Of a stretch of 44,115 nucleotides of DNA, positions 2,017 to 39,550 are shown one piece after another. Every line of letters starts with the position of its first letter. Position 1 is the first letter of the stretch. Below the pieces are notes generated by a model. That model was not told the DNA's origin, did not search any database, and saw nothing but the letters and a program-made list of their open reading frames with translations. Made by a program: the position numbers and the translations under genes. This stretch comes from Ruminococcus sp. (GTDB taxonomy: Bacteria > Bacillota > Clostridia > Oscillospirales > Ruminococcaceae): assembly GCA_017622925.1 (NCBI GenBank), contig JAGAQC010000022.1, positions 1 to 44,115 of the forward strand. The letters run 5' to 3'.

Positions 2017-2212
2017 ACTTAAGTGGGGGACTCTGTCCCCCACACCCCCTGCCAAAGGGGTGACCCCTTTGGAATCTCTGTTGTCGTGAATTGGACTGTA
2101 GTAATCCTCATATCTGTACGATGCTGTTAGTCTCCATGATTACCACAGTCCAATTCACGATAATGGACACCAAAAGATAACTCTTTAGCAGAAAGTAGAG
2201 GGTAACAAAATT
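2017..2212 (+). repeat. Composite hairpin repeat, family A copy 1
   Basis: Cassettes in order are a GGGGGAC/GTCCCCC hairpin (about 2025-2041), CCAAAGGGG/CCCCTTTGG (about 2052-2072), and a long hairpin with arms 2086-2106 and 2138-2158 that begin GTGAATTGGACTGT. A conserved tail ends in GAAAGTAGAGGG. The tip of the long stem reads GTAATC/GATTAC; copy 2 has AAAATC/GATTTT at the same place, which is a paired change. It lies between two minus-strand genes and, unlike most copies, is not in sense with the gene before it. Confidence 0.85.
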
Positions 2213-2215
2213 CGC

Positions 2216-2716
2216 TTAGGTTGTAGACAATGATAATAATTCGTTTTCGCTGAGCAGAACCGAATAATTATCATACAATTCATGGACAGCCTCGGGGAAC
2301 TTGTCCGCATAAGCGAATATTTCCTCCGCAAGTCCCTCTTTGAGAAATGCTCTCAGCTCGTCGTGGGACTGTCCGTAAACGCTGCCGCACAGCGAGGAAA
2401 CCGCTATTACCCGACTTTCGCCGCTTTTCATTACACGAAACGGCCATATACGGCAATCAAAAGGTTTATCGTCCCCCAGCATACAGCCGCTTTCGGTGAG
2501 GGCAGGGCAGGAAAACAGCTCGCCGTCTGCGATCTCCCCCGAATTAAGGACAAATCCGCCGCCCTTTTTCGCAAATTTCGCGTCGGGAACTGCGGCTGCG
2601 ACTTTTTCCATAGTTCCAGCCTCGAAAAGCGGAGTTTCCCACACGTCGTACCTGTCGAACACACAGCACAAACGACACTCCGCACAAGCAGCTTTACTCA
2701 GTATTTTTTTTAACAT
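2216..2716 (-). CDS. YkgJ-type cysteine-cluster protein
   Basis: This 166-residue soluble protein has Cys11, 14, 17 and 18 in a C-x2-C-x2-C-C pattern close to the N-terminus. Later cysteines follow the family layout (FSCPAL...GCMLGDDKPFDCRIWPF). These are the hallmarks of the YkgJ / CxxCxxCC family, thought to bind zinc or an iron-sulfur cluster; its biochemical role is not established. It has its own strong promoter at 2760-2788 and a ribosome site (AAAGGCGGTG) before the ATG. It is divergent from the DUF2461 gene, and repeat A1 follows its stop codon. Confidence 0.75.
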   Translation of the reverse strand: MLKKILSKAACAECRLCCVFDRYDVWETPLFEAGTMEKVAAAVPDAKFAKKGGGFVLNSGEIADGELFSCPALTESGCMLGDDKPFDCRIWPFRVMKSGESRVIAVSSLCGSVYGQSHDELRAFLKEGLAEEIFAYADKFPEAVHELYDNYSVLLSENELLSLSTT

Positions 2717-2759
2717 TTATATATACACCGCCTTTAATTAATGATATTAAAACAGACTA

Positions 2760-2788
2760 ATTATATCAAATTATTTCCTGAATGTCAA
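2760..2788 (-). promoter_or_regulatory. SigA promoter of the YkgJ-type gene
   Basis: On the minus strand TTGACA (2783-2788), a 17-bp spacer and TATAAT (2760-2765) preceded by TGA. Its -35 box is only 3 bp from the -35 box of the divergent promoter at 2792-2820, so the two are back to back. Confidence 0.85.
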
Positions 2789-2791
2789 CAG

Positions 2792-2820
2792 TTGAAATTT
2801 ACCCTGAAATATGATATAAT
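2792..2820 (+). promoter_or_regulatory. SigA promoter of the DUF2461 gene
   Basis: TTGAAA (2792-2797), a 17-bp spacer and TATAAT (2815-2820) with TGA just upstream. The leader to the start codon at 2875 is about 48 nt. Confidence 0.8.
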
Positions 2821-2874
2821 CATACTCGGGTCAATTGCAAAAACGCAAATACATAAATTTTGTGAGGTGCAGAG

Positions 2875-3615
2875 ATGTTCAAAGGATTTTCAAAAGAAGC
2901 TATAGACTTTCTTTTTGGTATAAGGCTCAACAACAGCAAGGAATGGTTCGAGCCGAGGAAAAAAATTTACACCGAAAAAATCTACGATCCGCTGAAAGAG
3001 CTTACCGAAGCGATATACAAGCCCTTTGAAAAATCGGGAATGATATGCAAAACGGGCAGGATATACCGTGACGAGAGCTTTCCGCCGTATCTTCATTATC
3101 GGGATACCATGTGGATTTACGTCCGTTATCAGGCGTATTACTGGAACAAAACTCCCACCCTGTATTTCGAGCTTTCTCCCGAGGGCGCAGAATTTGGTTT
3201 TCGCATTTCAAAACCCGAAGCAGCCGTTATGGAAGCTTTCAGACAAGATATAGCCAACGAGCCGCAGAAGTTCCTGAGTATGGCGGACTCCCTCAAAAAG
3301 CAGGGGATAGATTTCGGCGGCGAAGAATATAAGCGGAAAAAGAAATGCACTGTTCCCGAAGCAGAGGAATTTTTCATAAAAAAAGGACTGTCGGCATACC
3401 GCAGAATAAGCGATATACCGCAGCTTAACCGCCCCGAGCTTGCGGAGGAGATAATAAACGTCTTTAAGCTTGTGATGCCGCTGAACGATTATTTCCACGA
3501 TATTGTTGAAAAAATCGAAGTCGAAAAGGCTCTCGACAAAGCGGCGGCTGCCGTTTTGTCGGAAGAACCTGTTCACGAAGCCGTAAAAGCTCCCGATGTG
3601 GAATTTATGTGGTGA
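2875..3615 (+). CDS. DUF2461 family protein
   Basis: This 246-residue soluble protein matches the DUF2461 (TIGR02453) family from its first residues: a phenylalanine/lysine-rich opening, LFGIRLNNSKEWFEPRKK at about 13-30, then RIYRDESFPPY and an Arg/Tyr-rich core (WIYVRYQAYYW). Its length is close to the family norm. No function is known for the family and no catalytic motif is evident. The start has GAGGTG 5 nt upstream. The residues after about 230 look like a species-specific tail. It is monocistronic: repeat B1 and the convergent CPBP gene follow. Confidence 0.75.
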   Translation: MFKGFSKEAIDFLFGIRLNNSKEWFEPRKKIYTEKIYDPLKELTEAIYKPFEKSGMICKTGRIYRDESFPPYLHYRDTMWIYVRYQAYYWNKTPTLYFELSPEGAEFGFRISKPEAAVMEAFRQDIANEPQKFLSMADSLKKQGIDFGGEEYKRKKKCTVPEAEEFFIKKGLSAYRRISDIPQLNRPELAEEIINVFKLVMPLNDYFHDIVEKIEVEKALDKAAAAVLSEEPVHEAVKAPDVEFMW

Positions 3616-3640
3616 AATCACGATGTTAGCTTGCTGAGAA

Positions 3641-3887
3641 TTTTGTTTCCCTTTACTTCTTGTCAAAAGGAGACTGTTTGAACCCTATATCGTAAATTTC
3701 CCTGCATAAAGCCATAAAAATACGGATTCGGATTTATACGGAAGGCTTTATGCAGGAAAATTTACGACAGCAGAGATTCCAAAGGGGTCACCCCTTTGGC
3801 AGGGGGTGCAGGGGTGACTCCCTACAGTGTAGGGAGATGTCACGAAGTGACAGAGGGTACGGGGCGGTTAGCCAGAGTCCCCCTGCA
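3641..3887 (-). repeat. Composite hairpin repeat, family B copy 1
   Basis: Read on the minus strand it has the layout of family A: a GGGGGACTC start, CCAAAGGGG/CCCCTTTGG, then CTGTCGT, a long hairpin, ACGATA and a tail matching A (TTACTT...GTTTCC on the plus strand). The long hairpin is a different sequence from that of A: arms 3691-3713 and 3744-3766, 23 nt with one mismatch. Two further hairpins are present: CTCCCTACAGTGTAGGGAG (about 3818-3836) and TGTCACGAAGTGACA (about 3838-3852). It starts about 5 bp after the stop of the CPBP gene and is in sense with it. Confidence 0.85.
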
Positions 3888-3891
3888 AAGC

Positions 3892-4887: not shown

Positions 4888-4900
4888 TCCGACCCTCCTG

Positions 4901-4938
4901 TAAAAAATTCCCCTTCCGACTAAACAGAAGGGGATTTT
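4901..4938 (-). terminator. Intrinsic terminator after khpA
   Basis: The stem CCCCTTC (4910-4916) pairs with GAAGGGG (4927-4933), and on the minus strand a run of T (4902-4907) follows. It begins 2 bp after the khpA stop and ends beside the ribosome site of the next gene. Confidence 0.8.
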
Positions 4939-4939
4939 A

Positions 4940-5173
4940 TTATTCAATCGTAACTGTAACTTTGAGATCCTGCTTGGCTGCCCCTGCTCTCATGATAGTT
5001 CTGAGTGCCTTGGCGATCCTGCCCTGCTTGCCGATCACACGACCCATATCGTCGGGAGCTACGGAAAGTCGGAAATTGATAACGCCCTCCTCGTCCGGCT
5101 CGTCCTCAACGATAGTTATAGCAGTTTTATCTTCAACAAGTCCTGCTGCAATTGCATAAAGTAAATCTTTCAT
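4940..5173 (-). CDS. khpA: KhpA, KH-domain RNA-binding protein
   Basis: This 77-residue protein consists of a single KH domain with the GxxG loop (GRVIGKQGRIAKALRT, about residues 43-58). Its opening MKDLLYAIAAGLVED is typical of KhpA/YlqC. In other Firmicutes KhpA pairs with KhpB/EloR, binds RNA and influences cell elongation and division. Its position directly after rpsP in the ffh operon is the standard Firmicute arrangement and supports the name. It is the last gene before an intrinsic terminator. Confidence 0.92.
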   Translation of the reverse strand: MKDLLYAIAAGLVEDKTAITIVEDEPDEEGVINFRLSVAPDDMGRVIGKQGRIAKALRTIMRAGAAKQDLKVTVTIE

Positions 5174-5239
5174 AAGTCCTCCTTAGCTTTGGAAACAGAG
5201 CATGAGACTTTTGTCTCTGCTCCTCCTAAGCTATGCAAA

Positions 5240-5482
5240 TTAAAGGATTCCTTCCTTTTTGAGAAGTCCCTTTACTGTGTCTGTAGGCTGCGCACCCTTT
5301 GAGATCCAATCCTTTGCCTTATCAGCGTCGATCTTTACAACAGAGGGTTCTTTCGTAGGATCGTAGTAACCGATCTCCTCAACGAATCTTCCGTCTCTGG
5401 GGTATCTGGAATCTGCAACAACTACACGGTAGAAAGGAGCTTTCTTAGCGCCCATTCTTCTCAGTCTGATTTTTACTGCCAT
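5240..5482 (-). CDS. rpsP: 30S ribosomal protein S16
   Basis: This 80-residue protein opens with [19 protein letters not shown], followed by [22 protein letters not shown], the near-invariant S16 signature. S16 binds 16S rRNA and helps assemble the small subunit. The length is usual for the family. GGAGGTG lies before the start. It sits between a small membrane-protein gene and khpA in the ffh operon. Confidence 0.97.
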
Positions 5483-5540
5483 TTATATTCACCTCCAAAA
5501 ATTATTTTTTGTATATTCAAGCGGTTGACCGCATTGAAAG

Positions 5541-7703: not shown

Positions 7704-7899
7704 TAGTGCGCCGATATTTTAAACTGATTTAACCAATGTATCTTCTTCCCTCCAAAAGAAAAGGGCTATACCGAAGTACAGCCATAGTAAGTTTAAATAA
7801 ATATAGAAGGGGAATTGGGGGATCGTTTGATCCTCTTATATTATATTTGACTTTTCTTAAAATAATCTTAAATTATTGCGGTATTTATGCCGAGGATAT
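7704..7899. other. AT-rich intergenic stretch without a gene
   Basis: This lies between the ylxM promoter and repeat B2. An imperfect inverted repeat (GGCTATA...TACAGCC, about 7769-7784) is the only structure noticed. An open frame from 7736 lacks a ribosome site and runs into the repeat, so I do not call it. Confidence 0.5.
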
Positions 7900-8144
7900 T
7901 GTTTCACTGTACTTCTTGTTAAAGGGAGACTGTTTGAACCCTATATCGTAAATTTCCCTGCATAAAGCCATAAAAATACGGATTCGGATTTATACGGCAG
8001 GCTTTATGCAGGAAAATTTACGACAGCAGAGATTCCAAAGGGGTCACCCCTTTGGCAGGGGGTTCAGGGGTGACTCCCTACAGTGTAGGGAGATGTCATG
8101 AAGTGACAGAGGGTACGGGGCGGTTAGCCAGAGTCCCCCTGCTT
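7900..8144 (-). repeat. Composite hairpin repeat, family B copy 2
   Basis: It is nearly identical to B1, including the 23-nt-arm hairpin (about 7947-8022). It differs in the loop of one hairpin (TCATGAAGTGA instead of TCACGAAGTGA), in one base beside the long stem, and in the outer flank. It begins about 10 bp after the GH13 stop and is in sense with that gene, as B1 is with the CPBP gene. Confidence 0.85.
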
Positions 8145-16784: not shown

Positions 16785-16800
16785 CGTAATAATGACGTAA

Positions 16801-16999
16801 ACTTAAAGCGGGGGACTCTGTCCCCCTGCACCCCCTGCCAAAGGGGTGACCCCTTTGGAATCTCTGTTGTCGTGAATTGGACTGTAAAAATCCCCATAAT
16901 CAGCACGATACCGTTAGTCTCCATGATTTTCACAGTCCAATTCACGATAATGGACGCCAAGAGTTTCCTCTTTAACAGAAAATACAGGAAACAAAATCC
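16801..16999 (+). repeat. Composite hairpin repeat, family A copy 2
   Basis: The cassette order is as in A1. The long hairpin (about 16872-16944) has AAAATC/GATTTT at its inner stem where A1 has GTAATC/GATTAC. It begins 16 bp after the GH26-like stop, in sense with that gene. Only 41 bp lie between it and ispD and they contain no visible promoter, so ispD may be read through the element. Confidence 0.85.
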
Positions 17000-17040
17000 A
17001 CTTTAGCCAACGGCATTATCAAGCAAACAAGGAGAACACC

Positions 17041-20513: not shown

Positions 20514-20561
20514 TATATGTACGGCATCAGCTTAGAAAATTTTATTTCTTTTTTCTTTCAT

Positions 20562-20750
20562 AGGGAACGCCCTCTCTTGCAGGGCGTTCCCTCTCCAAAA
20601 CCGATTCACGGAATCGGTTTTGGATTCACCCTTTGCGGAGCGCTTAAACGCTATGCAGGGCTTCGCCCCGCACCCCACCAGAGGCGCTGCCTCTGGACTC
20701 CGCCAAAGGGACACCGTCCCTTTGGAATCCCGATATTAGTTCGCTTAAGT
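20562..20750 (+). repeat. Composite hairpin repeat, family C copy 1
   Basis: Cassettes in plus-strand order are AGGGAACGCCCT/AGGGCGTTCCCT; a stem CCAAAACCGATTC/GAATCGGTTTTGG; a GGAGCGCTTAAACGC hairpin; a GCAGGGCTTCGCCCCGC hairpin; CCAGAGGC/GCCTCTGG; and CCAAAGGGAC/GTCCCTTTGG. Read on the minus strand it starts about 18 bp after the pectate lyase stop. Confidence 0.88.
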
Positions 20751-24583: not shown

Positions 24584-24688
24584 AATATCTTCCTTTCATT
24601 GTACTGTCAACTGTTTGAGCAGGGGGACAATGTAAGTAACTTAAAAAATTATTTTTTTGTAGTGACACGGCGTGCCGTGTTCTTAATA

Positions 24689-24877
24689 AGGGAACGCCCT
24701 CTCTTGCAGGGCGTTCCCTCTCCAAAACCGATTCATGGAATCGGTTTTGGATTCACCCTTTGCGGAGCGCTTAAACGCTATGCAGGGCTTCGCCCCGCAC
24801 CCCACCAGAGGCGCTGCCTCTGGACTCCGCCAAAGGGACACCGTCCCTTTGGAATCCCGATGTTAGTTCGCTGAAGT
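24689..24877 (+). repeat. Composite hairpin repeat, family C copy 2
   Basis: It is almost identical to C1 (the loop of the variable stem is ATG instead of ACG). It is preceded by a palindrome ACACGGC-GT-GCCGTGT at 24665-24680. This is the only C copy not placed after a stop codon: it lies in the divergent region between the SpoIID-like and citrate synthase genes, upstream of the promoter at 24973. Confidence 0.88.
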
Positions 24878-24972
24878 TACGGACATTGCTTTGGAATCTC
24901 CCCTTACAGCAATTTTAATTAATAATTTCACCGCCCTGTCACAAATCTTACACATTTATCACAGAAAAGCGA

Positions 24973-28430: not shown

Positions 28431-29827
28431 TGGCAAGAAAAAGTATCACCAAACGCTGGGTATTCAATAATCTCGGCGTTATCGTACTCGCTCTTATCGT
28501 TATCGAGCTGGTCGTTATATACGCTATACAAAGCTATTACTACAGCTCCGCTAAGCAGTACCTTATCTCTAAAATAAACGCCGTTACAAGCGTTCTGAGC
28601 ATTCATTCTCAGGACAGCTCCGCCAACTTTTCCGCCGAAGTCCGCAACATGCTCGAGACCTTCAACGAAAAGGACAAAATAGAGCTTATGGCTATAAACT
28701 CAAAGGGGCGCGTTGTGCTGACTTCTTCGGGATTCTCCCCCGATGCGGACGCCCTCATGCCCGACTACGAGGACGCCATGAACAACGGTCAGGGCAGCTA
28801 TATCGGCAGACTTGAGGGCGGCGAAAAAATTCTTGCGGTATCCGTTCCGCTGTCGTCCCTAAACAGCGAATACAGCTCCGTCCGCATGGTTACGTCCCTT
28901 ACGGAGATAGACAATACCATAAAAGGCTATATCCTCTTTGTTACGGCGGTCTGCGCGGCTATAATCCTCATCATCGTCATTACGGGACTTTATTTCGCAG
29001 GCTCTATCGTCAAGCCGATACGTCAGATAAGCGGCATTACTCGTAAATTCGCTATGGGCGACTTTTCCGTGCGCATACAAAGCAATACGGACGACGAAAT
29101 AGGCGAACTGTGCAGCTCTATCAATCACATGGCGGACGAGCTTTCTTCGGCGGAGGCTATGAAAAACGAGTTCATCTCGTCAGTCTCCCACGAGCTGAGA
29201 ACTCCCCTTACCGCTATCAAGGGCTGGGCGGAAACTCTTATGGTCGACGGCGGCGAAAATCCCGATACAATGAAAAAAGGCGTCGGCGTTATCGTGAACG
29301 AGACTGAACGTCTGTCCCAAATGGTCGAGGAGCTTCTCGACTTCTCACGCATGCAGAACGGTCACTTTACCCTGCAAAACGCTACTCTCGACATTCTTGC
29401 CGAGCTTGGGGACGCAGTTCTCATATATTCCGACAAGGCTCGCCGTGAACAGATACAGATAATCTATGACGAACCCGAAATGCTGCCCTTTGTGTACGGC
29501 GATAAGAACCGCATTCGGCAGGTTTTCATTAACGTTATCGACAATGCCGTAAAATACTCCGAACCCGGAGATACCGTGACGATAAAAGCAAGAGAAAAGG
29601 ACGGAAAGATCGTCGTTTCGGTCAAGGACACGGGCTGCGGTATAAAAGAAAGCGACCTTGCTAAAGTTAAAACTAAATTTTATAAGGCGAACCATACAAG
29701 ACGAGGTTCGGGCATTGGACTTGCCGTTGCGGACGAAATTATCGCCATGCACGGCGGAAAGCTCGATATATACAGCTCAGGCGAGGGAAAAGGTACTACG
29801 GTAACGATCACACTTCCTCCAAAGTAA
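28430..29827 (+). CDS. Membrane sensor histidine kinase
   Basis: This 465-residue protein has two membrane segments (about 15-33 and 166-190) enclosing an outer sensor domain of about 130 residues. A HAMP segment, a HisKA domain with SVSHELRTPL (His254) and an ATP-binding domain (VFINVIDNAVKYS, KDTGCGI, GSGIGLAV, GKGTTVTITL) follow. The layout is that of PhoR/WalK-type kinases, without a visible PAS domain. It is translationally linked to the response regulator. Repeat C3 starts 4 bp after its stop. Confidence 0.95.
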   Translation: MARKSITKRWVFNNLGVIVLALIVIELVVIYAIQSYYYSSAKQYLISKINAVTSVLSIHSQDSSANFSAEVRNMLETFNEKDKIELMAINSKGRVVLTSSGFSPDADALMPDYEDAMNNGQGSYIGRLEGGEKILAVSVPLSSLNSEYSSVRMVTSLTEIDNTIKGYILFVTAVCAAIILIIVITGLYFAGSIVKPIRQISGITRKFAMGDFSVRIQSNTDDEIGELCSSINHMADELSSAEAMKNEFISSVSHELRTPLTAIKGWAETLMVDGGENPDTMKKGVGVIVNETERLSQMVEELLDFSRMQNGHFTLQNATLDILAELGDAVLIYSDKARREQIQIIYDEPEMLPFVYGDKNRIRQVFINVIDNAVKYSEPGDTVTIKAREKDGKIVVSVKDTGCGIKESDLAKVKTKFYKANHTRRGSGIGLAVADEIIAMHGGKLDIYSSGEGKGTTVTITLPPK

Positions 29828-29830
29828 CAG

Positions 29831-30019
29831 TCAAGCGAACTAACATTGGGATTCCAAAGGGACGGTGTCCCTTTGGCGGAGTCCAGAGGCAGCGCCTCTG
29901 GCAGGGTGTGGGACAGCGTCCCACAAAGCGTTCAAGCGCTCCGCAAAGGGTGAATTTTCAAACAGTCCTGTGGACTGTTTGAAAAGAGGGAACGCCCTGC
30001 AAGAGAGGGCGTTCCCTTA
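29831..30019 (-). repeat. Composite hairpin repeat, family C copy 3
   Basis: It reads in sense with the preceding kinase gene, 4 bp after its stop. The variable stem is TTCAAACAGTCC/GGACTGTTTGAA instead of the CCGATTC stem of C1 and C2. The central hairpin is TGTGGGAC/GTCCCACA instead of the GCAGGGCTTCGCCCCGC form. It is followed at once by a shortened A element. Confidence 0.88.
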
Positions 30020-30047
30020 ATGAACAGTGTAGAAACACGTCACACAC

Positions 30048-30191
30048 TCCCTTTGGAATCTCTGTTGTCGTGAATTGGACTGTGGAAATCCCCAAATTAA
30101 CACGATACTGTTAGTCCCCATGATTCCCACAGTCCAATTCACGAGAACGGACACCAAGAATTACCTCTTTAATAAGAAGTAAAGGGAAACA
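30048..30191 (+). repeat. Composite hairpin repeat, family A copy 3 (5'-truncated)
   Basis: It has lost the first two hairpins and begins inside the CCCTTTGGAATCTCTG cassette. The long hairpin (about 30071-30143) and the tail are complete. It stands in tandem with C3, suggesting insertion into, or recombination with, the neighbouring element. The 63 bp to the next gene show no clear promoter. Confidence 0.82.
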
Positions 30192-30254
30192 CTGTTCTCA
30201 TTAAACCGATAAATCGGAAGATGCGCAATATTGCAAAATTAAAAGGAGTTCACA

Positions 30255-31232
30255 ATGTCTCAAAAAAGCAATAAAGAAAAATTCAAATCAAAAATAGGCG
30301 GTCAGGCTCTTATCGAGGGCATTATGATGCTCGGTCCGTTGAAAGGAGCTATGGCATGCCGACTGCCCGACGGCACTATCGACCTTGAAGTATGGGACGA
30401 AAACAACGGCAAGCAAGCCCCGTGGTATAAGAAAACGCCCTTTATCCGCGGCTGCTTCAACTTCGTTTCTTCTCTTATCAAGGGCTACAAATATACCATG
30501 AAGTCCGCAGAAAAACAAATGACCGAGGAGGAAAAAGCCGAGGAGGACGCTAAAAAAGCCGCCAAATCAGGTACGTCCGCTTCTTCTGATGACGAAAAGC
30601 TGTCAAGCTCCGCCTTTGACATTATTATGATAATCGGCTCTGTTCTCGGCGTGGGAATTGCCGTGGGACTTTTCTTCTTCCTGCCTAAATTTTTGGTGGG
30701 ACTTATCCCTGTTGCGGCAGATACGGGCATTCTCCGCTCCATGCTCGAGGGTATCGTGAAAATAGCTCTGTTCGTCCTGTATATGTGGGCGGTGAGCCTT
30801 ATGAAAGACATCAAGCGGCAGTACATGTACCACGGCGCAGAACATAAGACCATAGCCTGCCATGAAGCCGAGCTTCCCCTGACTGTCGAAAACATTCGCA
30901 TGCAGTCAAGATTCCATAAACGCTGCGGCACAAGCTTCATTTTTATCGTGCTTCTTATCGGAATTTTCGTGATGTGCTTCGTTCCAAAGGGGCTTCTCTG
31001 GTGGCAGAGGTCGCTCATAAGCATTGCCGCTTTGCCGCTTGTGGTGAGCATTTCCTACGAATGTATACGTATCGCAGGAAGTCATGACAACCTTTTTACA
31101 AAGCTCCTGTCCGCTCCGGGACTTGCAATGCAGCGGATAACTACCCGTGAACCCGATGACAGCATGATCGAGGTAGCTATCGCCGCTATGACCCCCTGCA
31201 TTCCCGAGGATAAGGAGGAGGACAAGTGGTAA
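30255..31232 (+). CDS. DUF1385 family membrane protein
   Basis: This 325-residue protein has the DUF1385 signature: IGGQALIEGIMMLGP near the start, then YMYHGAEHKTIACHEAELPLT in the middle, followed by RFHKRCGTSF and further membrane segments. Four or more hydrophobic stretches make it an integral membrane protein. An acidic/lysine-rich stretch at about 88-118 is probably a cytoplasmic loop. The family has no proven function; the paired histidines and cysteines suggest metal binding. AAAAGGAG lies before the ATG. Its end overlaps the start of prmC by 7 bp, a link seen in other Firmicutes, so it belongs to this operon. Confidence 0.85.
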   Translation: MSQKSNKEKFKSKIGGQALIEGIMMLGPLKGAMACRLPDGTIDLEVWDENNGKQAPWYKKTPFIRGCFNFVSSLIKGYKYTMKSAEKQMTEEEKAEEDAKKAAKSGTSASSDDEKLSSSAFDIIMIIGSVLGVGIAVGLFFFLPKFLVGLIPVAADTGILRSMLEGIVKIALFVLYMWAVSLMKDIKRQYMYHGAEHKTIACHEAELPLTVENIRMQSRFHKRCGTSFIFIVLLIGIFVMCFVPKGLLWWQRSLISIAALPLVVSISYECIRIAGSHDNLFTKLLSAPGLAMQRITTREPDDSMIEVAIAAMTPCIPEDKEEDKW

Positions 31233-32089
31233 GCAGACTTGAACTCTACAAAAGCTGCGTAAAAATATTAACGGAACATAATATCGACGACGCCGAATTT
31301 GACGCTATGTGCATTTTTCAGCAGGCGTTCGGAGAAAAAATTCCGCTGTCCAAACCTAACGAGACAGCCGACAGTTCGCATATTAATAATGTACATAACG
31401 CTGTTGAACGCCGCTGCAACGGCGAGCCTTTGCAGTACGTTCTGGGCGAATGGGATTTCTGGAAATACACGTTCAAGGTAGGCGGCGGAGTTCTTATACC
31501 TCGCCCCGACACCGAAACGCTGATCCAAAACGTGCTTGATATATGCGAAAAAAACGCCCTCAGCTCGCCGAAAATTCTCGATCTGTGCAGCGGCAGCGGT
31601 TGCATTGCGGTAACTCTTGACAAAGAAATTCCACAGTCCGCCGTTTACGCTGTTGAAAAATTCGGCGCGGCGTTCGAGTACCTCAAAGAAAATATAAAGC
31701 TGAACGATTCGGACGTTACTGCGGTCATGGCGGACGTGCTTCTGCCCGAAAATGCCGTAAAGTTCAAGGATTTCGATATTATCGTAAGCAATCCCCCCTA
31801 CCTTACGCAAAAGGACATGACCGAGCTTCAGACAGAAGTCCGAAAAGAACCGAGTTCCGCTTTATACGGCGGTACGGACGGTCTCGACTACTACGAAAAA
31901 ATGACCCCCATATGGAGAGATTCCCTTAAAACAGGCGGTTTTCTCTGCTATGAATTCGGCATGGGTCAGGAAAACGCCGTCGGCAAAATATTGCTTGAAA
32001 ACGGCTTTGAAAATTTGAGCTTCGCCCGTGACGGCGGCGGCATTATCCGCACTGTCACGGCAGAAAAATCGGAGGAATATCATGGCTAA
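31226..32089 (+). CDS. prmC: Release-factor glutamine methyltransferase PrmC
   Basis: This 287-residue enzyme methylates the GGQ glutamine of peptide-chain release factors. The family's N-terminal helical domain (1 to about 85), [10 protein letters not shown], the SAM-binding [15 protein letters not shown] and the substrate motif NPPY are present. The start is GTG with AGGAGGAGG upstream; it overlaps the previous gene by 7 bp. The end overlaps recA by 8 bp, so the three are coupled. Confidence 0.95.
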
Positions 32090-33293
32090 AAAGGAACTTA
32101 AACAAAAACCCGCTGTCGTTCAGGTCACGGCAAAGGAGGACAAAAAAACCGCCCTTGCAAGCGCATTGAAGCAGCTTGAAAAAAAATACGGCGCAGGTGC
32201 TGTAATGCGTCTTGGCGAAACTAAAGTGCTGAACGTTGACTCTATCCCCACAGGCTCTATGACCCTCGATATGGCGTTGGGTATCGGCGGCGTTCCGAGA
32301 GGTCGTATCGTTGAGATATACGGTCCCGAAAGCTCGGGTAAAACGACTGTCGCTCTGTCTATCATCGCTCAGGCTCAGAAAATGGACGGAGAAGTCGCCT
32401 TTATCGACGTTGAACACGCCCTCGACCCCGTATACGCTAAGGCTCTCGGCGTAAATATCGACAACCTGCTCGTTTCTCAGCCCGACAGCGGCGAACAGGC
32501 TCTTGAAATTGCCGAAGCTCTCATACGTTCGGGCGCGATCGACGTTATCGTTCTCGATTCTATCGCCGCTATGACTACCCGTGCCGAGATCGACGGCGAA
32601 ATGGGCGATCTTCATGTCGGTCAGCTTGCCCGTCTTATGTCGCAGGCTATGAGAAAGCTTACCGCCGCTATCTCAAAATCAAACTGCGTTGCTATTTTTA
32701 TCAATCAGGTTCGTGAAAAAATCGGCGTAATGTACGGCAACCCCGAAACTACCCCCGGCGGTCGCGCTTTGAAATTCTATGCGTCCGTGCGTATCGAGGT
32801 CCGCAAGGGCGAGCCTATCAAGGACGGCGGTCAGATTATCGGCGCAAGTACCAAGTGCAAGGTCGTTAAGAATAAGGTCGCTCCGCCGTTCAAGGAGGCG
32901 GAGTTCGATATGATGTACGGACAGGGTATCTCACGTACAGGCGAAGTCCTCGATATTGCCACAGACCTCGAAATTATCAAAAAGGGCGGCTCGTGGTTCA
33001 GCTACGGCGACCGCAAGCTCGGTCAGGGTCGTGACAACGTTAAGGAACTTCTCAAAAACGAACCCGAACTTATGAAAGAGATCGAGGAGCTTATCCTTAA
33101 ACGCAAGGACGAGGTCATCGCCAAAACTGCCGCCAAAGCCAAGAAAAAAGGCAAAGCCGCAAATGCCGCCGCAGAAGCCGCAGAGGGCGAAAATACGGAA
33201 GAAATTGCTCCCGAACCCGAGGAAACTTCCGAAAATCTCGATATTCTCGAAAATATCGACGACGATTTCGAGGAGTTCACTCCTGCTGAGTGA
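32082..33293 (+). CDS. recA: Recombinase RecA
   Basis: This 403-residue protein drives homologous recombination and LexA cleavage. Walker A is GPESSGKTT (81-89); [40 protein letters not shown] and the [14 protein letters not shown] block are all typical. The C-terminal tail after about residue 350 is longer than usual, first Lys/Ala-rich, then strongly acidic. GGAGG lies 6 nt before the ATG at 32082; longer in-frame starts fall within prmC. It has no visible LexA box because it is inside an operon. Repeat C4 separates it from recX. Confidence 0.98.
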
Positions 33294-33336
33294 TGTTGTT
33301 TGTTCTCTAAACGCCATAAATTTAAGAGATCTAAAA

Positions 33337-33560
33337 TCGGGATTCCAAAGGGACGGTGTCCCTTTGGCGGAGTCCAGAGGCAGCGCCTCTGGTGGGGTGC
33401 GGGGCGAAGCCCTGCATAGCGTTTAAGCGCTCCGCAAAGGGTGAATTTCAAAACAGTCCAGTGGACTGTTTTGAAAGAGGTGACTCCCCACGGGTGGGGA
33501 GATGCCCGAAGGGCAGAGGGGACGGCACGAAGTGCGCCCTGCAAGAGAGGGCGTTCCCTT
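33337..33560 (-). repeat. Composite hairpin repeat, family C copy 4 (with extra cassettes)
   Basis: It lies 44 bp after the recA stop, in sense with recA. The variable stem is CAAAACAGTCC/GGACTGTTTTG. Extra hairpins are inserted at about 33480-33535: CTCCCCACGGGTGGGGAG, GCCCGAAGGGC and GGCACGAAGTGC. The first two stand in the same flanks (GACTCC...GGAGATG, then CAGAG) as the B hairpins TACAGTGTA and TCACGAAGTGA, but with different stems. recX follows 38 bp later, so the element probably lies inside the recA-recX transcript. Confidence 0.88.
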
Positions 33561-33598
33561 AACGATGCAGAAAATATTATAAGAAAATAAGGTATTAC

Positions 33599-34222
33599 AT
33601 GGAAATAACGTCATTAACTCAATATAAGGGTACTACCTACGAAATGGAGCTTGACGGCGAACGAAAGCTGTATCTGCATATCGACATTATCACGGATTTC
33701 GGACTTGCCAAAGGCATGGAGATAGACCGCCCCAAGCTGAAAAAAATTGTGTATGCCTCGAATTTTCGCCGCGCCTACGAATACGCTCTCTATCGGCTGG
33801 ATTATCGGGACTACTCGGCTGAGGAAATTTTTGAAAAGCTCGTACAGACCTACAAAAACGAATCGCTGTGTCTCGAGGTCGTTAAAAAACTCGCCAAAGC
33901 AGGCATAATAAACGATAAACGCTACGCCGAAAAGCTCGGCAGACGGTTCGTTGAGGGGAAAAAATACGGTTACAGCCGCGCAAAACGTGAAATGCGCCAA
34001 AAGGGTCTCGACGAGGAACTGGTCGAAAATGTCCTGCAACAATACGGCGAACTTTACGAGGAAAATCTGTCGGAACTGCTGAACACGAAATACAGCCGTT
34101 TCCTCGCCGACAGCTCCGACAGAAAATCAGTGGAAAAGGCTAAAAACGCCCTTGTCCGCTTCGGCTACAGTTATGATGAAATAAACAGAGCCGTAAAAAA
34201 TTATTTTGAAGATAACTTATAA
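33599..34222 (+). CDS. recX: Regulatory protein RecX
   Basis: This 207-residue, mostly helical protein has the RecX three-helix repeats (ALYRLDYRDYSAEEIFEKL, AGIINDKRYAEKLGRRFV, KGLDEELVENVL). RecX binds RecA filaments and limits their activity. It lies 305 bp after recA on the same strand with a composite repeat between, so both may be on one transcript, with the hairpins setting their ratio. AAGG lies before the ATG. Confidence 0.9.
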   Translation: MEITSLTQYKGTTYEMELDGERKLYLHIDIITDFGLAKGMEIDRPKLKKIVYASNFRRAYEYALYRLDYRDYSAEEIFEKLVQTYKNESLCLEVVKKLAKAGIINDKRYAEKLGRRFVEGKKYGYSRAKREMRQKGLDEELVENVLQQYGELYEENLSELLNTKYSRFLADSSDRKSVEKAKNALVRFGYSYDEINRAVKNYFEDNL

Positions 34223-34238
34223 AAAGGGTGTGCAGATT

Positions 34239-35582
34239 ATGCCTATTAAAGTCGGAATGGTGTCCTTGGGATGCTCGAAAAACCTTGTGGATTCCGAAAG
34301 AATGCTTTACAAGCTGAAAAAACACGGCTATGAGCTTGTTACCGAACCCGGTCTTGCCGATATTGCCGTAGTCAATACATGCGGATTTATAAAGTCCGCC
34401 AAAGAGGAGGCTATCGAAACTATCCTCGAACTCGCCGCGCTTAAAAATGACGGCACTCTGAAAAAAATCGTCATTACAGGCTGCCTTACAGAACGCTACA
34501 AAGAAGAAGCGGCGGAGCTTTTCCCCGAAGCCGACGCCGTTATCGGTATCGGAAACAATAAGGATATTGTTGATATTTTAAACGAAGTCATGGCAGGCGA
34601 ACGCATTGTTAAGTTCGCCCCTAAGCTTGACGCTGAACTTACGGGCGAGAGAATAATTTCAACGCTGCCGTTTTTTTCCTATCTGAAAATCGCCGAGGGC
34701 TGCTCCAACTGCTGTACCTACTGCGCAATTCCCATGATTCGCGGAAAGTTCCGCAGCGTGCCTATGGAGGACGTTTTGGCGGAGGCTCGAAGTCTTGCGG
34801 AAAACGGCGTGACGGAGCTTGTCGTTATCGCTCAGGACACCTCCCGTTACGGCGAGGACTTGTACGGCGTATCGAAACTCCCCGAACTGCTGAAAGAACT
34901 GTGCAAGATAGACGGCTTGAAATGGATCCGCACTCTCTACTGCTATCCCGAGCGTATTACGGACGAACTTCTGGACACTATCGCTTCTGAGGAAAAGCTT
35001 GTGAAATATCTCGAAATCCCCATTCAGCACTGCGACGGCGGTATACTCAGCCGCATGAACCGCTGGGGCGACGAACAAAAGCTTGAAAACCTCTTTTGCC
35101 ATATCAGAAAAAAAATATCGGGGGTTATCCTGCGTACAACGCTCATAACAGGCTTTCCCGGAGAAACTGAGGAGCAGTTCAACAGCTTGGCGGAATTCGT
35201 TCAGCGTGTGCGTTTCGACAGGCTCGGCTGTTTCCCCTATTCCGCCGAGGAGGGTACGAAAGCCGCCGAGTTCCCCGACCAAATAGACGAGGAAACTGCC
35301 GCCCACCGTGCCGATATTATTATGGAACAGCAGCTTGAAATTAGCTGCTCCAACAACCAAAGGCTCATGGACTGCGAGCTTGAAGCAGTCGTTGAAGGCT
35401 ACGACCGATTCGGCGAATGCTTCTTCGGACGTACTGCCGCGGACGCTCCCGATATTGACGGAAAGGTTTTCTTTACCTCTGAAAAACCCCTTGCTATAGG
35501 CAATTACGTTAAGATCAGAATAACGGATACGCTTGATTATGATTTGATTGGAGAAGTGATTGAGAATGAATCTGCCGAATAA
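34239..35582 (+). CDS. rimO: Ribosomal protein S12 methylthiotransferase RimO
   Basis: This 447-residue radical-SAM enzyme adds a methylthio group to an aspartate of S12. The N-terminal UPF0004 domain has three cluster cysteines (SLGCSKNLVDSE, VNTCGF, TGCLTERY). The radical-SAM motif is CSNCCTYC (CxxxCxxC) in EGCSNCCTYCAIPMIRGKFRS-type context, and a TRAM-like domain closes the protein. SLGCSKN and DSERM favour RimO over MiaB. The frame is open from 34206 inside recX; the ATG at 34239 gives the family N-terminus but has only a weak ribosome site (AAAAGGG). It overlaps pgsA by 17 bp. Confidence 0.93.
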   Translation: MPIKVGMVSLGCSKNLVDSERMLYKLKKHGYELVTEPGLADIAVVNTCGFIKSAKEEAIETILELAALKNDGTLKKIVITGCLTERYKEEAAELFPEADAVIGIGNNKDIVDILNEVMAGERIVKFAPKLDAELTGERIISTLPFFSYLKIAEGCSNCCTYCAIPMIRGKFRSVPMEDVLAEARSLAENGVTELVVIAQDTSRYGEDLYGVSKLPELLKELCKIDGLKWIRTLYCYPERITDELLDTIASEEKLVKYLEIPIQHCDGGILSRMNRWGDEQKLENLFCHIRKKISGVILRTTLITGFPGETEEQFNSLAEFVQRVRFDRLGCFPYSAEEGTKAAEFPDQIDEETAAHRADIIMEQQLEISCSNNQRLMDCELEAVVEGYDRFGECFFGRTAADAPDIDGKVFFTSEKPLAIGNYVKIRITDTLDYDLIGEVIENESAE

Positions 35583-36150
35583 GCTGACTCTGCTGAGAGT
35601 TGCGCTGATACCGTTTTTCCTTTTGTTTATATATCTTGACGTGCCTTTTCATTTCCTTTTGGCGTTATTTATCTTCACCGCCGCTTCTATAACCGACGCT
35701 TTGGACGGAAAGATCGCAAGAGCAAGGAATCTTGTCACTAATTTCGGAAAATTCCTCGACCCTTTGGCGGATAAGGTGCTTGTTATCTCTGCGCTGACGG
35801 TTTTTGTGGAGCTTGACGAGGTAAACATGGGCGCTGTGCCGCTTATCATCATTACCGCAAGAGAATTTATGGTCTCGGGACTTCGGCTTCTTGCGGCTGA
35901 CAGCGGAGTTGTCGTAGCTGCCGGAATATGGGGCAAGCTGAAAACGGCGTTCACTATGGTTACTATCGTCGCCGCCCTTTTATGGCTCAGCATTTGCCAT
36001 GATTTCAGCTTCAATATCCCCAACGCCGTTGTTACGGCTGCGGACGATATTATTATCCCCGTTCTTATCTGGGTTTCCACCATTCTGACGGTAATTTCGG
36101 GACTTATCTACCTTAAAGGCTACTACCACCTTATAGATTCCGATAAGTAA
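35566..36150 (+). CDS. pgsA: CDP-diacylglycerol-glycerol-3-phosphate phosphatidyltransferase
   Basis: This 194-residue membrane enzyme makes phosphatidylglycerol phosphate. The CDP-alcohol phosphotransferase motif is complete: DALDGKIARA...GKFLDPLADK. About five hydrophobic segments surround it, and it opens MNLPNKLTLLRV as usual. An in-frame TTG at 35560 is 6 nt after GGAG and cannot be excluded; the ATG at 35566 gives the usual family start. It overlaps rimO, so translation is coupled. Repeat C5 starts 18 bp after its stop. Confidence 0.95.
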   Translation: MNLPNKLTLLRVALIPFFLLFIYLDVPFHFLLALFIFTAASITDALDGKIARARNLVTNFGKFLDPLADKVLVISALTVFVELDEVNMGAVPLIIITAREFMVSGLRLLAADSGVVVAAGIWGKLKTAFTMVTIVAALLWLSICHDFSFNIPNAVVTAADDIIIPVLIWVSTILTVISGLIYLKGYYHLIDSDK

Positions 36151-36167
36151 CTCGGAATGTCATAAAT

Positions 36168-36356
36168 TTAAGCGTACTAACAATGGGATTCCAAAGGGAC
36201 GGTGTCCCTTTGGCAGAGTCCAGAGGCAGCGCCTCTGGTGGGGTGCGGGGCGAAGCCCTGCATAGCGTTTAAGCGCTCCGCAAAGGGTGAATTTTCAAAC
36301 AGTCCTACGTACTGTTTGAAAAGAGGGAACGCCCTGCAAGAGAGGGCGTTCCCTTA
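36168..36356 (-). repeat. Composite hairpin repeat, family C copy 5
   Basis: It is in sense with pgsA, 18 bp after its stop. The variable stem is CAAACAGTCCTACGTACTGTTTG, in which the tip has changed and pairs less well than in the other copies. A further short hairpin (GGGACGGCGTGTCCC, about 36390-36404) stands alone beyond it, like a stray cassette. Confidence 0.87.
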
Positions 36357-36443
36357 ATAGAGATAATTTTTTTAATTTAATGAAATTTGGGACGGCGTGT
36401 CCCTGCTTAAATCAACAACACTTAAACCAATGGAGGGGTGAAA

Positions 36444-36830
36444 ATGAAATACTGTGCGGCTCAGGTAAAATACATCATAGCGATACACGAACTTGCGGCG
36501 GTATCGGACGAGGTGAAAAGCGTTGATATTGCCCGTCATCTCGGCGTGTCGAGGTCAAGCGTCAGCAAGACCCTGCGTTGTCTTGCAAATTCGGGTCTCG
36601 TTTACGAGGATTTCGGAATAAGCGTTGCTCTTACGCCTGAGGGCGAGGACGCTGTCAGCGATATTTTCCGCAACTTCAACGAGGTCTATATTTTCTTCCG
36701 CCGATTTTTGAAGCTCCCCCATGAGGACGCCCATAAACAGGCTCTTACTTTCGTGACCACTTTCCCCGAGGAAACCTGCGTCAGACTGAAAAAAGTAATT
36801 CGCAAGAACGTTCACAAAAATTCCAACTAA
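36444..36830 (+). CDS. Small winged-helix regulator (DtxR/MarR-like)
   Basis: This 128-residue protein has an N-terminal winged helix: VKSVDIARHLGVSRSSVSK (about 26-44), LANSGLVYED and a VALTPEG wing. This resembles DtxR/MntR metal-dependent repressors, and a shorter helical part follows that could dimerise. The metal ligands of DtxR are not evident, so the signal it senses is unknown. A GTG at 36438 is in frame, but GGAGG 7 nt before the ATG at 36444 fixes the start. It stands alone, with repeat C5 before it and a strong terminator after it. Confidence 0.75.
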   Translation: MKYCAAQVKYIIAIHELAAVSDEVKSVDIARHLGVSRSSVSKTLRCLANSGLVYEDFGISVALTPEGEDAVSDIFRNFNEVYIFFRRFLKLPHEDAHKQALTFVTTFPEETCVRLKKVIRKNVHKNSN

Positions 36831-36870
36831 AAAATAACCGCCGTGTTTTCAGAACGGCGGTTATTTTTAT
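36831..36870 (+). terminator. Intrinsic terminator after the winged-helix gene
   Basis: A perfect 14-bp stem (36831-36844 / 36854-36867) is rich in GC at its tip and ends in a T run. It starts directly after the stop codon. Confidence 0.9.
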
Positions 36871-36902
36871 ATTCCATTTTAAATTGTTGACAATGCTTTT
36901 CT

Positions 36903-37091
36903 AAGGGAACGCCCTCTCTTGCAGGGCGTTCCCTCTTTCCAAACAGTCCACAGGACTGTTTGGAAATTCACCCTTTGCGGAGCGCTTAAACGATTTGTGG
37001 GACTCTGTCCCACACCCTGCCAGAGGCGCTGCCTCTGGACTCCGCCAAAGGGACACCGTCCCTTTGGAATCCCAATATTAGTTTCATTAAG
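36903..37091 (+). repeat. Composite hairpin repeat, family C copy 6
   Basis: Read on the minus strand it starts about 15 bp after the stop of the large regulator gene, so it has the same sense relation as C1, C3, C4 and C5. The variable stem is CCAAACAGTCC/GGACTGTTTGG and the central hairpin is TGTGGGAC/GTCCCACA with loop TCT; C3 has loop GC-rich here. The same GGGACTCTGTCCC core starts repeats A1 and A2. Confidence 0.88.
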
Positions 37092-37106
37092 TTCCCTGCT
37101 TAATTT

Positions 37107-39329
37107 TTAAACGCTCTCAAAACGTCTGTAAGAATTTGGGCTTACGCCCGTTTGCTGCCTGAATTGGCGGAGAAAATATTTATCATCGTCATAACCGCAC
37201 CTCTGCGCTATTGCCGTCAGATTCAATGCAGAAGTCAAAAGCAGATATTTCGCCAAAGATATTCTGCTTTGTATAAGATCGCGGTGAAAGCTTACCCCGA
37301 ACGTTCTCTTGTACGCCGCCCGAAAGTGTCCGCAGCTTATATGAAATTCCCGACACACCTCCTCGGCGTCCCATTTTTTCTCGGGAGCTGCATATACAGC
37401 CGTTCTGAGGTCTATATAACTGCCGTAGCTGCCGATTTTCCGCTTATCGTAGAGTTCCGCCGTCATATCGTTTATTTCCTCGGAAAGACTTTCCATTATC
37501 TCCTCAATAGACGCGTCCGCCGCAGGTACGGTAACTCCCCCGTGAACTATCATATCCGACTTTTTAAAGGACTTGAACACGGGCGAATGTATGATAAGAG
37601 CCGTAAGTCTGTCGATTATCAGCTTATCAAAATCTTCTGAAAATTTCCCCATGACCGCATACACGTACTGTCCGTCCGACAGTCTCGCACAAATTGCGCT
37701 GCCGTCTGCCGAAAGCTTTTTCAGACAGCCTGCCGTTTCCAGATTGAGCCTGACCTGCTGTTCCTTTTCGTCTATCCTGCTGTTATCGGCAAATATCCCC
37801 GACTTTAGCATGACTACGGCAAGCATATCTCCATTTTCCGCCTTGCCGAGAGATGTTTCAAGCTCCCGTTGAAGTCCTTCCTTATTATATAGCCCTGTCA
37901 GAGTGTCGTGAAATACCGAAAGATTATTGTACTCCAGCAGCTCGTTTATATCATTTTTCATTCGCAGCACGTTCAGGGCGTTTACTGCGGCGTTTAACCA
38001 GCCTGTCGTAACGGGGTCGTAGCAGTCGGGTTCGGTGTACTGAAAAATGAAATATCCCAATTCTATACCGTCCGTAAACATCGGCACAAAATACAAAAAC
38101 AGCCTTTCGCCTGCGCCGTAAAGCTCCTCGGTAAAAAGATTGCTACGTCTGAAAAAATGCGGCTCCGATTTGACCTCGATCGGACTAATTATCCTGTACA
38201 AGGTCATCATTTTATCGTTCGAGCTTACGTCAAGCTGCGATTCTTCCTTTAAATTGCACCAGTTCTCGTAAAGACACAGATACAGTCCCTTTAAATTCCT
38301 TATAAGATACGTGTAATCCTGCAAGGCTCTTATATAGTCTTTCAGTGAACGGCAGAGCGCAAGCTGCTGCTCGAAATTTCCGCATATCGTCATGCTGTTA
38401 TGGAACTGCTCCCGACGTACCTCCTCCAACTCCTCGCGAAGATATTTTTTATCTATTCCGCACGAACACGTATCGCCGCATATCATACAGCCCCCCAAAG
38501 GTATTTCCTTCGGCTTTTCTCCCGTTAATATCCGATGAAGCTCGCTGACCGCCCTTTCGCCTATCGCCGACCTGTTGCGCAGATATGTCGTAAGAATGGG
38601 CGAATGATAAAACCGCTCTCCCGAATATTCATAGCCTACGACCGTCACATCGTCGGGCGGATTTATATTATGCGCAAAAAACGTATCTATAAGTCCGTAT
38701 GCCATATAATCGTTGGCGCATATTATAGCCTGCGGAAGTCGGCGTTTTCCCTCGATATACTCCATTGCGGCTGCTTCTCCCGAGGACATCCAAAAATCGC
38801 CGTATATCACATTTTCTTCGGGAAAGTCTATTCCCTTTTCCATAAGTACGTCCCGAACGCCGTCCACACGCTCGCAAGAAGTCTCGATATGCTTCTGACC
38901 TGTGAGGACGTGTATATCCGTAAAGCCGTGTACGTCCGTAAGATGATGCGCAATATCCCTGAAATCCTCCCGAACGTCGTTATTTATGCAGACGTGTCCT
39001 TCCTGTTCTGTTCCCGTAATAATTATAGGCACTTTATTTTTGATTATTTTATTATATATGAACTGCTGCATCTGAGTTCCGATAATTGATTCAGCCATTA
39101 GAATAATTCCGTCTATTCTGTCCGATCCCGCAAGCTCGTATATCTTGTTCTCGACCTCGATATGACCGAAATACTCGCTGAAATCGGTAAAATTATATAT
39201 GTTTGATATTACCGCCGTGTAATATCCCAGACTGTCCGCGCGCTTCATTATGCCGTCAAGCATAATACGCTGCTCACGTTCCGATACACGCGTCGCCACT
39301 ACTGCTATCAATGGCTTTCCGTTCAGCAT
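37107..39329 (-). CDS. Regulator: sugar-binding fold, inactive GGDEF-like domain, AraC HTH
   Basis: This 740-residue soluble protein has three parts. Residues 1 to about 285 match the ligand-binding core of LacI/GalR regulators (PLIAVVATRVSEREQ, DGIILM, PQAIICANDYMAYGL, VTVVGYEYS) but lack the LacI DNA-binding end. A cysteine-rich turn (CMICGDTCSC, 281-290) and a middle region follow. Residues 474 to about 605 resemble a GGDEF domain (DTLTGLYNKEG) whose active motif is replaced by RLSDGQYVY (549-557). Residues 648-740 are an AraC helix-turn-helix pair (CGHFRAAYKRTFG, IAQRCGYDDDKYFLRQF). It is divergent from the xylanase gene, so it may sense a xylan-derived sugar and control it; this is inference. 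AGAGGG lies before the ATG. Confidence 0.85.
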   Translation of the reverse strand: MLNGKPLIAVVATRVSEREQRIMLDGIMKRADSLGYYTAVISNIYNFTDFSEYFGHIEVENKIYELAGSDRIDGIILMAESIIGTQMQQFIYNKIIKNKVPIIITGTEQEGHVCINNDVREDFRDIAHHLTDVHGFTDIHVLTGQKHIETSCERVDGVRDVLMEKGIDFPEENVIYGDFWMSSGEAAAMEYIEGKRRLPQAIICANDYMAYGLIDTFFAHNINPPDDVTVVGYEYSGERFYHSPILTTYLRNRSAIGERAVSELHRILTGEKPKEIPLGGCMICGDTCSCGIDKKYLREELEEVRREQFHNSMTICGNFEQQLALCRSLKDYIRALQDYTYLIRNLKGLYLCLYENWCNLKEESQLDVSSNDKMMTLYRIISPIEVKSEPHFFRRSNLFTEELYGAGERLFLYFVPMFTDGIELGYFIFQYTEPDCYDPVTTGWLNAAVNALNVLRMKNDINELLEYNNLSVFHDTLTGLYNKEGLQRELETSLGKAENGDMLAVVMLKSGIFADNSRIDEKEQQVRLNLETAGCLKKLSADGSAICARLSDGQYVYAVMGKFSEDFDKLIIDRLTALIIHSPVFKSFKKSDMIVHGGVTVPAADASIEEIMESLSEEINDMTAELYDKRKIGSYGSYIDLRTAVYAAPEKKWDAEEVCREFHISCGHFRAAYKRTFGVSFHRDLIQSRISLAKYLLLTSALNLTAIAQRCGYDDDKYFLRQFRQQTGVSPNSYRRFESV

Positions 39330-39360
39330 AATATCCCTCTTTTCGCCGATGTCATCAACC

Positions 39361-39550
39361 TAAGCAAGGGGACGCCGTCCCCCTGCACCCCCTGCCAAAG
39401 GGGTGACCCCTTTGGAATCTCTGTTGTCGTGAATTGGACTGTGGAAATCTTCAAATCAATATGATGCTGTTAGTCTCCATGATTCCCACAGTCCAATTCA
39501 CGAGAATGGACACCAAGAGTTACCTCTTTAACAGAAAGTAAAGCGATACA
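39361..39550 (+). repeat. Composite hairpin repeat, family A copy 4
   Basis: It is a full A element; the first hairpin is GGGGAC-GCC-GTCCCC where A1 and A2 have a TCT loop. The long hairpin is about 39429-39502. It lies between the predicted promoter (39592-39620) and the start codon (39329) of the large regulator, that is inside its leader, in antisense to it. Confidence 0.85.

What the first reader, a model, noticed from the sequence alone, without database searches (positions are those of the whole stretch)
2017..39550. A composite intergenic repeat system built from exchangeable hairpin cassettes
Twelve elements (2017, 3641, 7900, 16801, 20562, 24689, 29831, 30048, 33337, 36168, 36903, 39361) are strings of short hairpins. 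Families A and B share their outer cassettes and tail, yet the long central stem is a wholly different sequence between the same flanks (TGTCGT...ACGATA). In family C the second stem is CCGATTC/GAATCGG in two copies and CAGTCC/GGACTG or a close variant in four. Swapping a whole stem while keeping its surroundings suggests cassette exchange by recombination or strong selection on pairing rather than sequence. I know of REP, BIME and similar repeats in general, but cannot say whether this family is described.
Basis: seen in the sequence. Interest (0 to 1): 0.75.

Follow-up and report, generated by a model that had tools for sequence, protein, structure and literature searches.

The report
IS4-mobilised modular hairpin MITEs in Ruminococcus
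A gut Ruminococcus carries more than 200 copies of short repeats built from swappable hairpins; many bear the ends of a transposon that probably moves them, and one hairpin tip differs from copy to copy while its stem stays paired.

Summary
The window is contig 65 of a 2.5-Mb Ruminococcus assembly; the motif shared by all twelve elements occurs 227 times there, its control pattern never, and at least 5 times in 25 of 89 other congeners.

61 pairs of inverted repeats (CACTGTCTACAACTTAAG type) show a sharp 10-bp target duplication (identity 0.72 against 0.43 by chance). A congener has an IS4-family transposase with such ends and a perfect 10-bp duplication; this genome shows ends of a related IS at contig breaks. 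So the repeat-bounded copies are MITEs. Most C copies lack these ends and any fixed duplication: their mobility is unproven.

Cassettes are real: a three-hairpin cassette sits at several places inside elements, in both orientations, in three genomes. Stem arms change together, with no G-U excess. One triloop has 25 types in 79 hairpins here but 3 in 27 hairpins of two congeners.

Verdict: new variant of a known kind (modular MITE, as BOX), with an unexplained tip hotspot.

The parts
2006..2232 (+). A element with both TIR1 ends (2006-2023 and 2215-2232); central hairpin 2084-2160; no clear 10-bp duplication at this copy
3632..3886 (-). B element; central hairpin 3690-3767; cassette X about 3815-3872
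7888..8142 (-). B element, 96% identical to the one at 3632; central hairpin 7946-8023; cassette X about 8071-8128
16800..17009 (+). A element (approximate ends, no recognised TIR); central hairpin 16870-16947
20553..20750 (-). C element, CCGATTC/GAATCGG stem; central hairpin within 20591-20627 (strand given in the reading direction GGGATTCC to GTTCCC)
24680..24888 (-). C element, CCGATTC/GAATCGG stem; central hairpin within 24718-24754; a weak TIR1-like match at 24871-24888 (3 mismatches)
29833..30021 (+). C element, CAGTCC/GGACTG stem; central hairpin within 29952-29988; absent from relative L003
30045..30206 (+). left-truncated A element; central hairpin 30068-30144; absent from relative L003
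33318..33552 (+). C element with cassette X at about 33481-33535; central hairpin within 33443-33479; relative L003 has an A-type element at this site instead
36163..36358 (+). C element, imperfect stem tip; central hairpin within 36289-36325; absent from L003
36895..37092 (-). C element; central hairpin within 36933-36969; absent from L003
39347..39592 (+). A element with TIR3-type ends (GATGTCATCAACCTAAG on the left, GTTAATAACATC on the right); central hairpin 39427-39503; absent from L003

Best explanation
A family of non-autonomous elements (MITEs) in Ruminococcus whose cargo is a string of hairpins. Shown: the TIR1-bounded copies carry 10-bp target duplications, and a transposase gene of the IS4 family with the same ends and duplication length exists in a congener, with ends of a related IS in this genome. 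Shown: hairpin cassettes, above all cassette X, occur at several places inside the elements, in both orientations and in more than one element family. Inferred: the IS4-type transposase moves these MITEs in trans; pieces are reshuffled between copies by recombination or copying; the arms are kept complementary by arm-templated copying (template switching in replication) rather than by selection on an RNA. The C copies without recognised ends are read as relatives that share the hairpins, not as proven transposition products.
For: 10-bp duplication in 61 TIR1 pairs, 0.72 against 0.43, 20 of 61 at 90% or more against about 1% of mixed pairs, 9 and 11 bp near chance; stricter subset of 37: 0.759 against 0.429. 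L295: 446-aa frame, 17-nt identical ends, perfect 10-bp duplication, YREK spacing, NCBIfam IS4 family 139.5 bits over cut-off 115. Own genome: left ends at contig ends C3, C42, C52 and right end at C43 with a 37-aa fragment 73% identical. TIR1 matches 7 of 8 fixed positions of the published IS231-subgroup end pattern (counted by eye against PMC2266710). Five shared intergenic sites differ from L003. Cassette X at many positions. Two-sided stem changes 129 of 1036 C cells, 52 of 1518 A, 29 of 1176 B; no G-U excess.
Against: Only 31 of 124 A/B and 7 of 94 C copies have TIR1 at both ends under the stricter rule; 30 A/B and 60 C have none of the three end types. A scan of C copies found no duplication at any offset. 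TIR2 (6 pairs) and TIR3 (2 pairs) duplications are inconclusive. No intact transposase of this kind was found in the window's own genome, and among 149 genomes only G018 has the full-length one. The C stem alone shows more kinds of G-U than A-C (6 against 1). Reverse-complement pairing of triloops, expected from loop inversion, is not significant under a composition null (P 0.29).
Confidence: 0.66

Rival explanations
1. The elements are kept for an RNA-level job (bidirectional terminator, mRNA 3' end protection, attenuator), so stems are conserved by selection on pairing of the transcript.
For: Two-sided stem changes far above shuffles; copies lie between genes, with more convergent than divergent sites, 46 against 26 of 188 placed copies (P 0.024). 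BOX repeats are predicted to affect co-transcribed genes (PMC3049150, passages).
Against: No G-U over A-C excess overall (54 against 63 cells). No Rfam family at its gathering score in the window. Position 5 of the C stem is A-T in 39 and C-G in 35 copies with no intermediate, which is an unlikely path by single steps. Orientation to tandem genes is mixed.
Confidence: 0.15
2. REP/BIME-type palindromes moved by a RAYT (Y1 transposase).
For: Short, palindromic, intergenic, high copy.
Against: No Y1_Tnp domain in the own genome, which is 87.8% complete; 10-bp duplications and long terminal inverted repeats point to a DDE transposase.
Confidence: 0.04
3. Passive repeats: old duplicated intergenic pieces spread and homogenised by recombination alone, the TIR1 copies being a minority captured by an IS.
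For: Most C copies lack ends and duplications; modules reassort, e.g. H3 alleles against stem types 11/16 and 9/12, Fisher P 1.0.
Against: TIR1 duplications are sharp, and elements are absent at shared sites in a relative about 83-93% identical. It could still be true of family C.
Confidence: 0.15

Closest known systems
BOX elements of Streptococcus (pneumoniae, suis)
   Same: Modular intergenic repeats with separate end and inner modules, folded structure, TIRs and duplications; different end modules around the same inner boxB in S. suis (PMC3049150, passages).
   Different: BOX varies by tandem boxB number; here whole hairpins are inserted inside other hairpins or exchanged, ends are of IS4 type, and one triloop is hypervariable. 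Sequence homology to BOX was not tested.
MIC231 and other IS231/IS4-derived mobile cassettes
   Same: Non-autonomous elements with IS231-like ends; IS4 family makes about 10-bp duplications (PMC2266710, passages; MIC231 seen only in listings and one mention).
   Different: MIC231 elements carry other cargo (recalled); here the cargo is hairpins only, in more than 200 copies of the core motif.
TIMEs (Tn3-derived miniature elements)
   Same: Miniature elements that make mosaic non-autonomous transposons (PMC4133298, title and start of abstract in a listing).
   Different: Tn3-family ends rather than IS4; no hairpin cassettes known to me.
REPINs and REP/BIME
   Same: Palindromic intergenic repeats (PMC3116915, PMC3733652, listing only).
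   Different: Need a RAYT; none found here.
Small dispersed repeats of cyanobacteria that insert in structured sites (recalled, not read)
   Same: Very small mobile repeats inside other repeats or hairpins.
   Different: Other sequences and hosts; recalled lead only.

Membership tests
MITE (non-autonomous, IS-mobilised) | terminal inverted repeats | tested here: met
   68 TIR1 pairs; but strictly only 31 of 124 A/B and 7 of 94 C copies have both ends
MITE (non-autonomous, IS-mobilised) | target site duplication of fixed length | tested here: met
   10 bp in the TIR1 set; not met for C copies as a whole; inconclusive for TIR2 and TIR3
MITE (non-autonomous, IS-mobilised) | ends match an IS of the host | tested here: met
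   IS ends at contig ends of the own genome; intact IS only in congener G018
MITE (non-autonomous, IS-mobilised) | movement shown between strains or in an assay | tested here: inconclusive
   five sites differ from L003, but borders are not clean; no assay
IS4 family (for the helper L295) | YREK motif with spacing 2-3-6, single ORF, about 10-bp duplication | tested here: met
   YFKRWPVEVKFDIVK, one 446-aa frame, 10-bp duplication; NF033592 over cut-off; definition
IS231 subgroup | ends CAT-------AA--TAA--- | tested here: inconclusive
   7 of 8 fixed positions, third base C instead of T (by eye); no tree of transposases made
REP/RAYT | Y1 transposase in the genome | tested here: not met
   no PF01797 match, genome 87.8% complete
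BOX elements | modular inner repeats between end modules | tested here: met
   module tables; resemblance of plan only
BOX elements | sequence homology to boxA/boxB/boxC | not tested
   no BOX sequence was compared
known structured RNA | Rfam match at gathering score | tested here: not met
   0 in the whole window; 8 sub-threshold matches in 29780-30260

The most novel reading that the evidence does not exclude
Two processes not known together in bacterial repeats: (1) cassette X is itself a mobile hairpin that enters loops and bases of other hairpins, its third hairpin differing by entry site; (2) the triloop of the C central hairpin is a structure-dependent mutation hotspot in this lineage, so each copy ends up with its own tip, while arms are rewritten together by template switching.
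Probability: 0.3. Interest if true: 0.8.

Novelty: new variant of a known kind. Interest (0 to 1): 0.58.

Why it matters
If right, one genome offers about 70-120 near-identical hairpin copies per family in which arm-templated rewriting of stems and tip mutation can be counted, a natural test of the proposal that template switching makes and keeps hairpins (PMC8794818, abstract and outline). It also gives an IS4-type transposase and MITEs for a genus of gut fibre degraders, and an explanation of why such assemblies break at these repeats.

Tried and rejected
A fuzzy search for TIR2 pairs timed out and was replaced by local alignment, whose lower-case right flanks were printed reversed but not complemented and were not used for duplications.

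Insertion into pre-existing palindromes: flanks of 61 TIR1 copies are no more inverted-complementary than mixed pairs (5.88 against 5.72, sd 1.40). Rejected for TIR1; not tested for TIR2.

Loop inversion as source of triloops: 7 reverse-complement pairs among 22 types; P 0.013 under a uniform null but 0.29 under a composition null. Not established.

RAYT and Rfam families: none. ISAs1-like transposase L252 in the own genome has no TIR1 in its locus. Fixed duplication for C copies: scan over offsets and 4-12 bp found nothing (best excess 0.09). Literature: searches gave no description of these repeats; the library is open-licence PMC only, so this is weak evidence of absence.
Full report
WHAT IS THERE. 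The window is contig C65 of a 2,503,476-base, 76-contig genome, 87.8% complete; the best relatives of its large 39800-43663 protein are Ruminococcus. All twelve elements are confirmed. They share the motif CCCTTTGGAATCYC: 227 places in the genome with at most one mismatch (117 forward, 110 reverse), none for the pattern read backwards. Family-specific patterns with up to 3 mismatches give 124 (A and part of B), 103 (C) and 46 (B) (they overlap). I fetched 136 stretches around 209 places outside the window.

DISTRIBUTION. The exact motif is in 49 of 149 genomes searched, own included: 46 of 89 other congeners and 2 of 59 genomes of other families in the order (counted from its table). A 14-base motif found once or twice is weak evidence; 25 congeners have five or more (up to 108 in G064). 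Some hit loci differ in plan after the first hairpin.

ENDS AND HELPER. A/B copies often lie between inverted repeats of type CACTGTCTACAACTTAAG. In 61 pairs the 10 bases outside match at 0.72 against 0.43 for mixed pairs; 9 and 11 bases are near chance; 20 of 61 match at 90% or more against about 1%; the target is AT-rich, TT....AA. A stricter count gives both ends in 31 of 124 A/B and 7 of 94 C copies, one end in another 33 and 16, none of the three end types in 30 and 60; the 37 usable strict pairs give 0.759 against 0.429. Other ends exist (TIR2, TIR3) but their duplications are inconclusive. In G018, locus L295 holds a 446-aa PF01609 frame between CACTATCCACAACTTAA repeats and a perfect 10-bp duplication, with the YREK spacing of the IS4 family (motif and 10-bp rule from passages of PMC2266710) and an NCBIfam IS4 match over cut-off. 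In the own genome three contigs (C3, C42, C52) end about 140 bases inside a sequence that begins with TIR1 and resembles the left part of L295, and C43 ends inside a right part with a 37-aa fragment at 73% identity: probably a multi-copy IS collapsed by assembly. An intact own transposase was not seen. C1 ends in a second IS-like left end, CAATGCCAACAACTTAAG, inside an A element.

FAMILY C. Its left end is conserved to about AACTTAAGCGAACTAACAT, its right end to CCCTTA, and no duplication appears at any offset in 75 copies. Two inverted copies carry the left-end sequence at the right end too (L126, L147). How most C copies moved is open.

SITES IN A RELATIVE. Locus L003 is collinear with window 28760-43881 in segments 83-93% identical. 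At five intergenic sites it differs: 412 bases with two elements against 22; 269 (C) against 206 (an A-type element); 281 against 0; 240 against 84; 230 against 67. The borders are not clean, and loss in L003 is possible.

CASSETTES. The central A/B stem has at least seven forms (A 66, B1 36, B2 13, S3 3, S4-S6 one each of 121). The left hairpin is short or carries a long insert with A (10 of 66), B1 (15 of 36) and B2 (3 of 13) alike, while the tail mostly follows the stem. In C, the third hairpin's two main alleles combine freely with two main stem forms (11/16 and 9/12, Fisher P 1.0) but less so with a third (1 of 12 typed). The insert, cassette X (TGACTCCC..GGGAGATGTC..GACAGAGGG plus a third hairpin), was found 39 times in the own stretches, 16 in 20 stretches of G063, 14 in 20 of G035. 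Positions include the A left hairpin, the C last hairpin, the linker before the second C hairpin, the second hairpin tip (reverse), a CAAGGG hairpin tip, the third hairpin and the GCGCTCC/GCAAGG linker (reverse). The third hairpin differs by site. Two A-site copies (L160, L222) have inner hairpins of the C-site type, so the exchange crosses families. A half-X pattern is in 0 of 290 other genomes of the class sampled outside the genus.

STEMS AND TIPS. C central stem: 1013 of 1036 cells Watson-Crick, 129 changed on both sides; on 53 distinct rows 98.0% paired against 84.1% in shuffles, 97 two-sided cells against 24.0, covariation 0.406 against 0.150 and at most 0.154 when slid; the count of further pair types is not beyond shuffles (34 of 500 reach it). 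Related rows inflate such counts. A: 1425 of 1518, 52 two-sided; B: 1126 of 1176, 29 (7 of 122 rows of other type or false dropped). Departures: G-U 30, 17, 7 and A-C 48, 11, 4 for A, B, C; in all 54 against 63 (P 0.46, cells not independent), so neither strand shows the wobble excess expected of RNA selection; C alone leans to G-U in kinds (6 against 1). The C triloop columns have entropies 1.77, 1.95, 1.54 bits against a median minor frequency of 0. Of 3-base windows it has 25 states in 72 copies, the next non-overlapping 8, median 2; all 6 pairs identical in the other 167 columns differ at the tip, as do 61 of 67 pairs with at most 2 differences. In G063 and G035, 27 hairpins have 3 triloops and vary at the stem base instead; 27 drawn from the own 79 have 15.4 on average and never fewer than 9 in 100,000 draws. 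The A loop is also variable, up to 17 states per 3-base window. The tip hotspot is thus real and lineage-specific; its cause is unknown. Template switching, which homogenises arms and inverts loops (PMC8794818 abstract; PMC8604942 start of abstract), fits the arms; loop inversion was not significant.

CONTEXT. Of 188 placed copies 116 lie between tandem, 46 between convergent and 26 between divergent frames, a crude ORF-based count; convergent over divergent P 0.024.

MECHANISM. Most likely an IS4-type transposase moves TIR1-bounded copies by cut and paste; hairpins inside are reshuffled by copying between repeats; arms stay complementary by arm-templated synthesis. The first step rests on ends and duplications, the others are inference. 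Novelty: a new variant of the modular MITE kind, nearest in plan to BOX (PMC3049150, passages).

Noticed in passing
L326 (G000:C47), about 789-818: A 30-base TIR1 remnant, CACTATCCACAACTTAAGTGGGGGACAGTG, between flanks that match at 9 of 10 bases; looks like an internal deletion between GAC repeats of an A element.
   Followed up: partly
L323 (G000:C33) and L324 (G000:C34): TIR1-bounded small elements without the core motif, one with a different hairpin cargo, one almost only ends.
   Followed up: no
L321 (G000:C1, contig end): A second IS-like left end (CAATGCCAACAACTTAAG) inside an A element's first hairpin region.
   Followed up: partly
C copies, e.g. L131, L150, L160: Many C copies are followed by a further hairpin of the ACACGG..CCGTGT type, a possible extra module.
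   Followed up: no
G063 and G035 loci L330-L369: There the base of the C central stem, not the tip, varies with paired changes.
   Followed up: partly
contigs C3, C42, C43, C52, C58, C57, C1: Contigs end inside TIR1-bounded repeats, so the assembly breaks at these elements.
   Followed up: yes
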